Source of the DNA: Mycobacterium sp. NBC_00419
Lineage (GTDB): Bacteria > Actinomycetota > Actinomycetes > Mycobacteriales > Mycobacteriaceae
NCBI RefSeq assembly: GCF_036023875.1
Contig: NZ_CP107931.1
Coordinates: 3,658,001-3,722,000, forward strand
DNA: 64,000 nt
Direction: 5' to 3'
Positions 48,826 through 64,000 of the stretch are shown one piece after another; the first letter of the stretch is position 1; each line of letters begins with the position of its first letter. The position numbers and the translations under genes are program-made. The notes under the pieces were generated by a model. The model was not told the origin of the DNA, ran no database searches, and saw only the letters and a list, made by a program, of their open reading frames with translations.

Positions 48826-50328
48826 TCAGTACGCCCCAGAGTGCGAGAACACCGCTTTCATCGTCTTCATGGCGATCAGCAGATCGGCGACCATCGACCA
48901 GTTCTCGACGTAGAACAGATCGAGCCGGACGGTGTCCTCCCACGACAGGTCGGAGCGACCGCTCACCTGCCACAGGCCAGTGATGCCAGGACGTACGAGC
49001 AGTCGACGCATCGCGTAAGCGTCGTACGACTTGACCTCTTTGGCCAGCGGGGGGCGCGGTCCGACGACGCTCATCTCGCGCTTGAGGACATTCATGAACT
49101 GGGGCAGTTCGTCAATGCTGTACTTGCGCAGATACCGCCCCACGGTGGTCACTCGCGGATCGTCGTGAAGCTTGAACAGTACCCCGCCCTGGAAATCGTT
49201 GTGGCGCGCCAATTTGTCGACCATGCGGTCAGCGCCATCGACCATCGTCCGGAACTTGAGCATGACGAACGGCTTGCCATCCAGACCGATGCGGCTCGAT
49301 CGGTACAGGATTGGTCCTGCACTCGTCAGCTTGATGGCGAGTGCGACAACGACGAGGAATGGCAAGCCGCACAGCAGGACTGCCGAGGAGAACGCGACGT
49401 CGAAGACGCGCTTCTGAAAGCGCTTGGCGCCGTCATACTGCGGCTTCTCGACGTGGATCAGCGGAAGCCCGGACACCGGACGCATCTGAAGCCGTGGTCC
49501 GGCGATGTCGGCGACACCGGGCGCGACGAGGAGGTCGACGTCGAGCTTCTCGAGTTCCCATGACAGATCACGGATTGCGCGGCTGTGGAGGCGCTCGGTC
49601 GCCGTGACCGCTACGGCTTGGCAGCCGGTTGCCAGGACGGCTTCCACCACATTGGATTCGTCACCGAACGTCGGGACCTTCCTGACGCCGGGTACGTCAA
49701 CGTAGGTATGGATGTTGGGTCCGGGAATGCACGCACCGACGACCTGGTATTCCGACCACTGCTCACGGGCAAGGGACTGAGTCAGATCACGAACAGCGGG
49801 AACGCTGCCGACAGCCAGTACGCGAGTGATGTAGCGGCCGTGCTTCATCCGGGCTCTGATCAGTGAGCGGCGGACCGACCAGCGCATCAGGGCGAGAATG
49901 ACCATCCCTGCCGGGAGGGCCACAAGCAGATAGCCCCTGGCGATCTCGAGTTTGAACAGCATCGACACGATCGCAACCCCACCGAACACGGACAGGGTCG
50001 CCGCCCAGACTCGCCGATACTCTTCTGCGCCGGCGCCGATGATACGTACCGAGCGGGATCGGGCAACGTACAGCGCCGCCAACCATGCGACGGCAATCAT
50101 CAGCGAGACCGCAGTGTAGCTGGGGCCCTGCGGAGTTCGCGGTACGACCGGCATTTTGCCGAACCGTACCCAGTGTGCGAGCCCAACCGCGGCAACAACT
50201 CCGAAAAAGTCGATGGCGACGAGGCGACGTGCGTATCCGTACTGCCACGAAGCAAATCTGTTGTTCAGCGAGGTATCGGTGTGGGCTGCAACTTGTAGCT
50301 CATTGCTTTCGCCTGCAGCTGTCAACAA
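48826..50328 (-). CDS. Phosphoglycosyl (exopolysaccharide sugar) transferase, WbaP type
   Basis: A 500-aa membrane enzyme that loads the first sugar-1-phosphate onto undecaprenyl (decaprenyl) phosphate. About four N-terminal membrane segments, a Rossmann-like central region ([14 protein letters not shown]), a fifth segment at about 312-335, and a catalytic domain with [40 protein letters not shown] and [18 protein letters not shown] start at 50328 with a G-rich stretch before it; the exact start is uncertain. It is probably the initiating enzyme for the repeating unit of the downstream polysaccharide locus. Confidence 0.9.
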
Positions 50329-51236
50329 ATCCCCCGATTCCCGAGAATCTCATCCAGCGCCATTGCTTAACGCGTGTGATCTTCTCATATCAAGTACCGT
50401 GCCGCTTGCGCGGGCAACGAAATTGACAGCGGATCTTCAGCTTGGCGTCTGTTCGAATGGCGGACCCGACAATTTATCTACGGCCACGTGCAACCTCAGC
50501 TAAATCGCAACGGGCCGTTGACGATAACTCATCGGGGCTGAATTACGTCCACGAAGGGCACGGTGCTCTATACCAAATGAAACCTGACCTAGTTTGCTTG
50601 ACAAAGCAAAATAAGTGCTTTATCGAGCATGAACATGGAAAAGAACTCCTGTGGTGTTAGCTCCGATACTGTGCGGCAACGAGAACAGGCCACCGGAACA
50701 CGGGAGCGTCCGCAGTGCCAGCGTGCCAACTCCGGCACAGCCTGTGCAGCAAGGCAATCCACCGGCCCGCCGAGTGGCCACTTCGTCCGACGCGGGGGCG
50801 AGATAGTCAACAGTCAGATTGGTCGCGACACGATCCGCGGGGGAGTCGGTCTGGGAGCCGGCCGGCGTGATCCATTGCGCCGGGCCATCTTCCAATACGG
50901 CGATATTGCTGGGGGTCCGCCTAGCGGGAGCTCGATCGGACCTTTCGTGATCCCCTCCTGGATTTCTAGGAGGAAGAGGCGGGAACGCATCCTCAGCCTG
51001 AAAGACAAGCCGGTGTCTCTGAAAGAAATCTGCACGGTGCCTGGCCTATACTTCGACGACAACGGCGTGTGGTTGCAGACTCGGGATTCGCATCGAACTG
51101 AAAGTCGTTGTAGCCAAGCATATTGCAGGTGGAACGGCGTCATCATCGACGATGGGCTGCGCCAGTCGGGTCGGGACCTCGGTGATTATCGGGGTATAGC
51201 TGGTATCTATCAGATCTAGCGGGATAGGGCGCATTG
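50329..51236. other. Gene-poor region of lower GC between sugar transferase and rmlB genes
   Basis: About 900 bases in which I support no gene. Base composition is visibly more AT-rich than around it, with AT tracts near 50390-50640. Frames at 50629-51219 (196 codons) lack a ribosome site and family motifs. One perfect hairpin, TTTGCTT-GACA-AAGCAAA, lies at 50593-50610. The stretch probably contains the divergent promoters of the locus; it may be remnant or horizontally acquired DNA. Confidence 0.5.
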
Positions 51237-52232
51237 ATGCGGTTGATTGTCACCGGTGGCGCGGGGTTCATCGGATCAAACTTCGTCCGACACGTGATCG
51301 ACCGCACCAGCTACCACGTGACGGTGCTAGACAAATTGACCTATGCGGGTAACCGTGCGTCCCTCAAAGATCTGCCGGACAAACGTGCCACGTTCGTCCG
51401 CGGGGACGTCGCCGACGCAGCCGTGGTTGATGAGCTTTTTGCCGGGGCCGATGCCGTCGTCCACTTTGCCGCGGAAACGCACAACGACAATTCGCTGCAC
51501 GGGCCGCATCCCTTCTTGGACACCAACCTGGTGGGCACCTTCACCCTGCTTGAAGCGGCCCGAAAGTACGGAACCAGATTCCATCATGTGTCGACGGATG
51601 AAGTGTATGGTGATCTGGCACTTGATGATCCGGCCAGGTTCACCGAGGCCAGTCCCTACAACCCCTCGTCGCCGTACTCCGCGACAAAGGCAGGAAGCGA
51701 CCTCCTGGTGAGGGCCTGGGTCCGTTCGTTCGGCGTCGCAGCCACGATCTCGAACTGCTCGAACAACTACGGGCCCTACCAACACGTCGAGAAGTTCATC
51801 CCGCGACAGATCACCAACGTGCTGTGCGGTCTGCGTCCCAAGCTCTACGGAGAAGGGCGCAACGTTCGCGACTGGATCCATGCGGACGACCACTCGTCAG
51901 CGGTGCTGAGGATCCTGGAAAAGGGCCGCATCGGAGAGACGTATCTCATCGGCGCCGACGGGGAGAGGGATAACAAGAGCGTCATCGAGATGATCCTCAC
52001 CTTGATGGGGCATCCCGCGAACGCGTACGACCATGTCGTCGACAGGCCCGGTCACGATCTGCGCTACGCGATTGACGCCACGAAGTTGCGCGCAGAGTTG
52101 GGCTGGCAGCCGAGGTATCGAGACTTCACGCGGGGACTGGCCGCCACAATCGAGTGGTACCGCGACCACGCAGACTGGTGGGGGCCGGCCAAAGATGCCA
52201 CCGAGGCGTTCTACGCCGACCTCGGCCAGTGA
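51237..52232 (+). CDS. rmlB: dTDP-glucose 4,6-dehydratase
   Basis: A 331-aa extended SDR that converts dTDP-glucose to dTDP-4-keto-6-deoxyglucose, the second step to dTDP-rhamnose and other deoxysugars. NAD motif GGAGFIGS (7-14), [17 protein letters not shown] (with catalytic Asp-Glu), [11 protein letters not shown] (Tyr-x3-Lys), [13 protein letters not shown] and [10 protein letters not shown] are present. rmlA, rmlC and rmlD are not in the window. ATG at 51237 (a TTG directly before it is unlikely). It probably supplies deoxysugar to the polysaccharide locus. Confidence 0.93.
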
Positions 52233-63828: not shown

Positions 63829-63835
63829 CGAATCC

Positions 63836-64000
63836 TCAGGGCTTTGACTCTGCTGCCTCTTTCTCGGGCGTGGCCGATACATCAGCGGGAGTCTCGGCCG
63901 ACCCGTTCTTGTCCGATGAACCATTCAGCGTCGCGCCATCGCTGCCATAGCTGTAGTTGTAGCTATAGCTGTACGCCGTGGTGCCACGTGCGGCTGTCAT
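63836..64000 (-). CDS. C-terminal tail of a probable bacterial tyrosine kinase (Wzc/CpsD type), partial
   Basis: The last 54 codons of a leftward gene that continues beyond the window edge. The tail holds a cluster of Tyr alternating with Ser/Asn/Gly (AYSYSYNYSYGSDG) followed by a Glu/Ala/Ser-rich end. Such Tyr clusters are the autophosphorylation sites of BY-kinases and Wzc proteins that control chain length and export in Wzy-dependent polysaccharide systems. Identity is inferred from this tail and the locus context; the kinase domain is not in the window. Confidence 0.6.
   Translation of the reverse strand: MTAARGTTAYSYSYNYSYGSDGATLNGSSDKNGSAETPADVSATPEKEAAESKP

What the first reader, a model, noticed from the sequence alone, without database searches (positions are those of the whole stretch)
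48826..64000. Wzx/Wzy-type acidic exopolysaccharide locus in a mycobacterium
A complete-looking set is seen: initiating phosphoglycosyl transferase, rmlB, at least four glycosyltransferases (GT4 x3, GT2), Wzy-like polymerase, Wzx-like flippase, pyruvyltransferase, a Tat-exported beta-helix protein, a probable Tat lipoprotein and the tail of a BY-kinase-like protein. Mycobacteria are best known for arabinogalactan and lipoglycans, not for Wzy-dependent capsules. The pyruvyltransferase predicts acidic ketal groups. This is the strongest candidate for an undescribed system in the window.
Basis: partly seen in the sequence, partly recalled or inferred. Interest (0 to 1): 0.85.

Follow-up and report, generated by a model that had tools for sequence, protein, structure and literature searches.

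The report
Variable capsule-type locus in environmental mycobacteria
This environmental-type mycobacterium carries a large gene cluster that looks built to assemble a capsule-like sugar polymer by the Wzx/Wzy route, at a chromosomal spot where a relative holds a different version, and it includes a widespread protein of unknown function that is predicted to fold like the enzymes that fix sugar polymers to bacterial cell walls.

Summary
Profile searches confirm the PGT, RmlB, four GTs, Wzy, Wzx and a pyruvyltransferase-like protein. The same genome read past base 64000 completes a Wzz/BY-kinase and shows DUF4012 proteins, a second PGT, a tyrosine phosphatase and a second Wzx/Wzy set. The block is about 45 kb, between rplA and a lipG/cyclopropane-synthase/ABC1 block. 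In the relative with the nearest DUF4012, both flanks and the PGT-side end are 94-99% identical, while Wzy, Wzx and most GTs fall to 52-72% or give no hit: a serotype-like pattern. DUF4012 occurs in 93 of 297 genomes of the genus (own included) and lies within 60 kb of rplA in 23 of 32 near-complete carriers. The DUF4012 core is predicted to have the LytR-CpsA-Psr (LCP) fold: the top 26 rows of the structure comparison are LCP entries (eight identified by recall), then a gap. It has no LCP sequence match and lacks the PRD motif, so wall anchoring is proposed, not shown. No Wza-type exporter was found. The pathway kind is known, also with DUF4012 in Bifidobacterium; a mycobacterial case and the LCP link did not appear in my (capped) paper searches. 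'Acidic' and 'rhamnose' remain inference.

The parts
48826..50328 (-). PGT1, initiating polyprenyl-phosphate hexose-1-phosphate transferase
   Evidence: PF02397 218.9 bits; TIGR03025 407 bits over cut-off; 95% identical in relative G516
51234..52232 (+). RmlB-type dTDP-glucose 4,6-dehydratase
   Evidence: TIGR01181 456.5 bits, cut-off 365.1
52321..53421 (-). GT4a glycosyltransferase (DUF1972/Cps2T-like; the Cps2T model is under its cut-off)
   Evidence: PF13692 53 bits, PF09314 49.4 bits; NF046071 131.7 of 500; 94% in G516
53517..55085 (-). Tat-signal protein with weak beta-helix match; true start probably near 54872
   Evidence: SRRTLLRR in the translation; PF13229 17.8 bits below cut-off; relative aligns from residue 72
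55127..56479 (+). Wzy1 polymerase (O-antigen ligase/polymerase superfamily)
   Evidence: PF04932 45.8 bits, cut-off 31.7; about 10 hydrophobic segments; 43 proteins found including the own one
56494..58002 (+). Wzx1 MOP flippase
   Evidence: PF13440 204 bits, PF01943 114 bits; about 10 hydrophobic segments
58030..58815 (-). Polysaccharide pyruvyltransferase-like protein
   Evidence: PF04230 50 bits, profile 123-280 of 280; no hit in G516
59383..60294 (-). Tat-signal lipoprotein, function unknown
   Evidence: SRRSALQ and LSGC in the translation; no family over cut-off
60378..61385 (-). GT2 glycosyltransferase
   Evidence: PF00535 24.9 bits, cut-off 23.3
61310..62299 (-). GT4b glycosyltransferase
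   Evidence: PF13692 27.1 bits, cut-off 27
62659..63828 (+). GT4c glycosyltransferase
   Evidence: PF13692 60.1 bits
63836..64000 (-). C-terminal end (Tyr-rich tail) of the 485-aa Wzz/BY-kinase 1; the rest is G000:C1:3722001-3723293 (L006:1-1293), followed outside the window by DUF4012a L006:1442-3283, PGT2, LMW-PTP and a second Wzx/Wzy set up to DUF4012b L010:8198-9997
   Evidence: PF02706 40.2, PF13614 46.6 bits; TIGR01007 172.7 bits over cut-off
48780..48813 (.). Perfect hairpin (14-bp stem, 6-base loop) between the convergent rplA and PGT1, possibly a shared terminator at the locus edge
   Evidence: read in the sequence; not in the terminator scan's list, which was at chance level

Best explanation
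A Wzx/Wzy-dependent heteropolysaccharide (capsule or exopolysaccharide) locus at a recurrent, variable chromosomal site. PGT1 loads a hexose-1-phosphate on polyprenyl phosphate, GT4a/GT2/GT4b/GT4c extend the repeat unit, a PyrT-like enzyme may add a pyruvate ketal, Wzx1 flips it, Wzy1 polymerises it, and the Wzz-BY-kinase (with the LMW phosphatase beyond the window) sets length and output. A second set beyond base 64000 probably makes a second polymer from GDP-fucose-type and NDP-uronic-type sugars. The PGT1 end and the BY-kinase1/DUF4012a end are conserved in a relative while most of the middle is not, as in serotype loci. Shown: gene families, completeness, site, divergence pattern. Inferred: the polymer, its sugars, its transport, and that DUF4012 (LCP-like fold) takes the lipid-linked polymer and fixes it to the wall.
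For: Families over curated cut-offs for PGT, RmlB, Wzx, Wzy, Wzz/BY-kinase. Second Wzz/BY-kinase, DUF4012, Wzx, Wzy in tandem (Wzy2 is 30.4 bits, just under the cut-off of 31.7, as a protein and 34.4 bits, over it). Relative G516: nusG, rplK, rplA, PGT1, RmlB, GT4a 94-99%; DUF4012a 93%, BY-kinase1 90%; lipG, sigma, two CMAS, hydrolase, ABC1 94-97%; but beta-helix protein 85%, Wzx1 61%, Wzy1 52%, GT2/GT4b/GT4c/GT4d/GT4e 62-72%; PyrT, Tat lipoprotein, Wzx2, Wzy2, GT4f, GT4g without hit. DUF4012 within 60 kb of rplA in 23 of 32 genomes and a PGT within 60 kb of DUF4012 in 27 of 32. BY-kinase just downstream of DUF4012, same strand, in 61 of the 73 named loci with room to look, of 80 fetched. GC of the locus 60.5-61.4% against 66.6% in window 1-46000 and 65.8% after it (62.0-64.8% in the 4 kb blocks just before it). 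DUF4012 core has the LCP fold.
Against: No polymer is known from this strain. No Wza-type exporter in the genome, so passage through the mycomembrane is unexplained. In 5 of 32 carriers no PGT lies within 60 kb of DUF4012 (G437 79 kb; G482, G433, G260, G302 over 330 kb), and 12 of 73 loci lack the adjacent BY-kinase. Conservation of the far end is incomplete: in G516 DUF4012b is 87% but BY-kinase 2 only 64%, and the outermost flank ORF 75%. DUF4012 lacks the PRD motif (1 of 93, elsewhere in the core, against 26 of 27 LCPs), no LCP family appears even in a Pfam scan up to E 10 of seven DUF4012 sequences, and profile-profile support for LCP is nil (probability 1.6% at best).
Confidence: 0.78

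Rival explanations
1. The locus makes a glycolipid (lipooligosaccharide-like) or decorates glycoproteins; Wzy acts as a ligase, not a polymerase.
For: PF04932 is named O-antigen ligase and covers ligases as well as polymerases (recalled); M. smegmatis has pyruvylated glycolipids (PMC6801904, passages); an Acyl_transf_3 protein lies in the second set.
Against: A Wzz/BY-kinase sits in the same cluster and one lies next to DUF4012 in 61 of 73 loci; two flippases and two Wzy_C proteins. No polyketide synthase or acyl-CoA ligase matched among the proteins scanned.
Confidence: 0.12
2. DUF4012 is not a ligase but a non-catalytic carrier-lipid or polymer-binding adaptor of the Wzz/BY-kinase, using an LCP-like fold. 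(This concerns the DUF4012 step only and is compatible with the rest of the main explanation.)
For: Adjacent to the BY-kinase in 61 of 73 loci; PRD motif absent; four ordinary LCPs already in the genome.
Against: Glu219, Arg221, Asn279, Asn281, Arg358 and Lys359 are the same in 93 of 93 sequences, which looks like an active or binding site.
Confidence: 0.4
3. The cluster is a decaying or silent mobile island.
For: Lower GC than its surroundings; patchy occurrence, DUF4012 in 93 of 297 genomes.
Against: No stop inside the matches; PGT1 and DUF4012a/BY-kinase1 conserved at 90-95% in G516; near rplA in 23 of 32 carriers.
Confidence: 0.06

Closest known systems
Bifidobacterium longum 105-A cps/eps cluster (PMC5412050, passages read)
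   Same: Priming transferase, DUF4012, wzz, GTs, wzy, pyruvyl transferase, wzx and rml genes in one locus; a priming-gene deletion mutant was studied
   Different: No mycomembrane (recalled); there DUF4012 was called only an auxiliary envelope protein; one set
Rhodococcus equi capsule (PMC6801904, passages; DUF4012 in R. equi/Prescottella)
   Same: Serotype-specific, acidic, pyruvylated capsule in a mycolic-acid bacterium (the last point recalled); carries DUF4012 proteins
   Different: Whether the DUF4012 gene lies in the capsule locus was not tested here
Wzx/Wzy clusters of Actinoplanes missouriensis (PMC13390465, passages read)
   Same: Actinobacterial clusters with Wzx, Wzy and Wzz, several per genome
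   Different: Sporangium formation; DUF4012 not seen in the passages read
LCP (LytR-CpsA-Psr) wall glycopolymer transferases
   Same: DUF4012 core is predicted to have the fold; one N-terminal hydrophobic segment
   Different: No PF03816 match, PRD motif missing, extra helical N-part and C-terminal beta domain
Known mycobacterial capsule (alpha-glucan, arabinomannan; recalled)
   Same: Outer polysaccharide layer
   Different: Made by other enzymes (recalled); not compared by search here

Membership tests
Wzx/Wzy-dependent polysaccharide pathway | Initiating phosphoglycosyl transferase | tested here: met
   PF02397 218.9 bits, TIGR03025 over cut-off
Wzx/Wzy-dependent polysaccharide pathway | MOP-family flippase Wzx | tested here: met
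   PF13440 204 bits, PF01943 114 bits; NCBIfam flippase models match but under their cut-offs
Wzx/Wzy-dependent polysaccharide pathway | Wzy polymerase, multi-spanning membrane protein | tested here: met
   PF04932 45.8 bits, cut-off 31.7; about 10 hydrophobic segments. The family does not tell polymerase from ligase (recalled)
Wzx/Wzy-dependent polysaccharide pathway | Wzz/PCP co-polymerase with BY-kinase | tested here: met
   PF02706, PF13614; TIGR01007 172.7 bits over 108.05; Tyr-rich tail
Wzx/Wzy-dependent polysaccharide pathway | Polymer that depends on Wzy | not testable with these tools
   Needs a mutant and sugar analysis
Gram-negative group 1 capsule | Outer-membrane exporter Wza/OPX (PF02563) | tested here: not met
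   0 matches in the own genome; 4 of 14 control genomes ring
LCP (LytR-CpsA-Psr) family, for DUF4012 | PF03816 sequence match | tested here: not met
   Not among matches up to E 10 for 7 of 7 DUF4012 sequences, nor; profile-profile probability 1.6% or less
LCP (LytR-CpsA-Psr) family, for DUF4012 | LCP fold | tested here: met
LCP (LytR-CpsA-Psr) family, for DUF4012 | RSD/NTD-type and PRD active-site motifs | tested here: not met
   PRD in 1 of 93 cores (at residue 351) against 26 of 27 LCP segments; RSD-type triplets in 10 of 93, nine of them NSD/NTD at residue 248, against 26 of 27 (slightly wider pattern for LCPs)
LCP (LytR-CpsA-Psr) family, for DUF4012 | Transfer of lipid-linked glycopolymer to the wall | not testable with these tools
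   Needs biochemistry

The most novel reading that the evidence does not exclude
Many environmental mycobacteria carry a serotype-type capsule locus at a recurrent site between rplA and the mycolate cyclopropane-synthase block, and its hallmark protein, DUF4012, is a divergent branch of the LCP superfamily that fixes a BY-kinase-controlled capsule to the mycobacterial wall, which would remove the need for a Wza-type exporter.
Probability: 0.4. Interest if true: 0.82.

Novelty: new variant of a known kind. Interest (0 to 1): 0.66.

Why it matters
It would mean that a large part of the genus Mycobacterium has strain-variable surface polymers like the K and O antigens of other bacteria, which would bear on phage adsorption, biofilms and environmental survival. 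It gives a structure-based guess, with conserved residues to test, for a widespread protein family of unknown function (1836 relatives among 7993 candidates scored) that three papers in the library mention. It also poses a clear open question: how a Wzy polymer leaves a cell with a mycomembrane and no Wza-type exporter.

Tried and rejected
Rejected: the locus ends at 64000 (it runs on). No solved structure is related to DUF4012 by sequence (no match up to E 1). PDB sequence searches with the beta-helix protein, Tat lipoprotein and PyrT gave nothing useful. The whole DUF4012 model gave no Foldseek match at E<=0.001 in PDB (best rows were M1 peptidases at E 0.01) nor in the viral library; the LCP match showed only in the VIA second look and with the core folded alone. 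The core model is less sure (mean pLDDT 77.9, residues 35-42 and 92-98 under 50) than the whole model (90.8), and Foldseek TM-scores (by query length) for the LCP rows are only 0.36-0.47. hhalign of DUF4012 against 30 LCP frames (probability 1.64%), then against trimmed segments, of which 3 of 30 came out empty (1.36% with two settings, 0.03% global): the trimmed alignment runs collinear with the fold match but is not significant. In one search the LCP strand and frame were picked with the help of motif counts, which leans the LCP motif count upward. Promoter and terminator scans were at chance level; Rfam found only the tRNA. M. tuberculosis was not a genome I could name here, so its lack of the locus is recalled, not tested. 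Interior-gene counts in the 80 named loci understate sharing, since flanks reach at most 10 kb; they are not used as proof of variability, which rests on one relative. L007-L009, around the other PGTs, were fetched but not analysed.
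Full report
WHAT IS THERE. The window is bases 3658001-3722000 of a single-contig 5.6 Mb genome. Its DUF4012a protein is 93% identical to one from Mycobacterium sp. DL592, the next best being 80%, so 'mycobacterium' holds. The weak items are the beta-helix protein (below cut-off), GT4b (27.1 bits at a cut-off of 27) and the pyruvyltransferase (50 bits, C-terminal half of the profile only).

BEYOND THE WINDOW. The next 40 kb (L006, L010) complete the picture. In order: Wzz/BY-kinase 1 (485 aa), DUF4012a, an endonuclease/exonuclease/phosphatase-family protein, PGT2, LMW tyrosine phosphatase (CTGNICRS), a methyltransferase, a GT, an FkbM methyltransferase, DegT aminotransferase, acyltransferase, Gmd and Fcl (GDP-fucose route; Gmd over its cut-off, Fcl 433 bits under a cut-off of 500), GT, Wzx2 (PF13440 26.9 bits, cut-off 23), GT, epimerase, nucleotide-sugar dehydrogenase, hexapeptide protein, GT, Wzy2, methyltransferase, Wzz/BY-kinase 2 and DUF4012b. 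Then follow a lipG-like esterase, a sigma factor, two cyclopropane synthases, an alpha/beta hydrolase and an ABC1 kinase. The block is about 45 kb, with GC about 61% against 66.6% for window 1-46000. The genome holds five PGTs, three Wzy_C proteins, two DUF4012, four LCPs and no Wza.

A RECURRENT, VARIABLE SITE. G516 is a 5.1 Mb relative with two DUF4012 genes 26 kb apart, as here; its contig length equals that of the DL592 record, so it is probably that strain. It holds the nearest DUF4012a, though another genome, G385, has a slightly closer rplA (97% against 95%). The best tblastn hits of my proteins in its rplA region: nusG, rplK, rplA, PGT1, RmlB, GT4a 94-99%; BY-kinase1 90%, DUF4012a 93%, DUF4012b 87%; lipG to ABC1 94-97%. 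In between: beta-helix protein 85%, Gmd 84%, GT2 68%, GT4b 72%, GT4c 65%, Wzx1 61%, Wzy1 52%, BY-kinase 2 64%; PyrT, the Tat lipoprotein, Wzx2, Wzy2, GT4f, GT4g and others have no hit. This is what serotype loci look like, but it is one comparison. In the genus, 93 of 297 genomes have DUF4012; in the family 129 of 301, while Wzy1 finds a match at E<=1e-10 in 2 of 301, itself included. I took the 32 carriers, other than the own genome, with at most three contigs: DUF4012 lies within 60 kb of rplA in 23, at 373-455 kb in 6 (a possible second site) and farther in 3; a PGT lies within 60 kb of DUF4012 in 27. The carriers are related, so these are not independent events. Of 80 named loci, 73 had room to look downstream of DUF4012 and 61 have the BY-kinase there, same strand; 64 had room upstream and 32 show at least two of the four cyclopropane-synthase-block genes.

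HOW IT MOST LIKELY WORKS. Shown by sequence: the enzyme families and their order. Inferred: a repeat unit built on a polyprenyl carrier, flipped by Wzx, polymerised by Wzy, length set by the kinase and phosphatase pair, and handed on to the wall by DUF4012. The last step would answer how the polymer is kept on a cell without a Wza-type exporter, but a free exopolysaccharide is not excluded.

AGAINST KNOWN SYSTEMS. The kind is known. B. longum 105-A has priming transferase, DUF4012, wzz, wzy, pyruvyl transferase, wzx and rml genes in one cluster (PMC5412050, passages); its DUF4012 was named an auxiliary envelope protein, repeated in PMC6744442 (passage). R. equi makes a pyruvylated capsule (PMC6801904, passages) and has DUF4012 proteins. 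Three library papers mention DUF4012; none of the passages read links it to LCP. Seven searches for a mycobacterial Wzx/Wzy locus listed none; only titles and abstract starts of capped listings were seen, most subscription papers are not in the library, and no preprints are held.

VERDICT. The finding is right in kind, too narrow in extent, and its 'acidic' and 'rhamnose' details are unproven. The stronger results are the recurrent variable site and the LCP-like fold of DUF4012. On checking, facts were mended but none moved the odds.

Noticed in passing
G386, G464, G370, G500, G549, G347: In six of 32 near-complete carriers DUF4012 sits 373-455 kb from rplA with a PGT 23-27 kb away: a possible second fixed site for such loci.
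   Followed up: partly
G482, G433, G260, G302: DUF4012 within 40 kb of rplA but the nearest PGT over 330 kb away: split arrangements, or DUF4012 working for a distant locus.
   Followed up: no
L006:4346-5329: Endonuclease/exonuclease/phosphatase-family protein with three hydrophobic N-terminal segments near DUF4012a; relatives occur in 13 of 80 named loci. Role unknown.
   Followed up: no
L106 (M. llatzerense), L110 (Mycolicibacterium sp. CBMA 234): These loci share the beta-helix protein and the GT2-GT4b pair with the window, so part of the repeat unit may be the same; M. llatzerense also has a Wzy 50% identical.
   Followed up: no
G000:C1 about 4749-4759 kb, 3541 kb and 4101 kb: Three more PGTs, one about 9 kb from a third Wzy_C protein: further polysaccharide loci in this genome; fetched as L007-L009 but not analysed.
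   Followed up: no
L052, L083, L087, L104: Contigs filed as Planctomycetota, Verrucomicrobia, Acidobacteria and Akkermansiaceae MAGs encode DUF4012 at 55-68% identity to the mycobacterial one; binning errors are likely.
   Followed up: no
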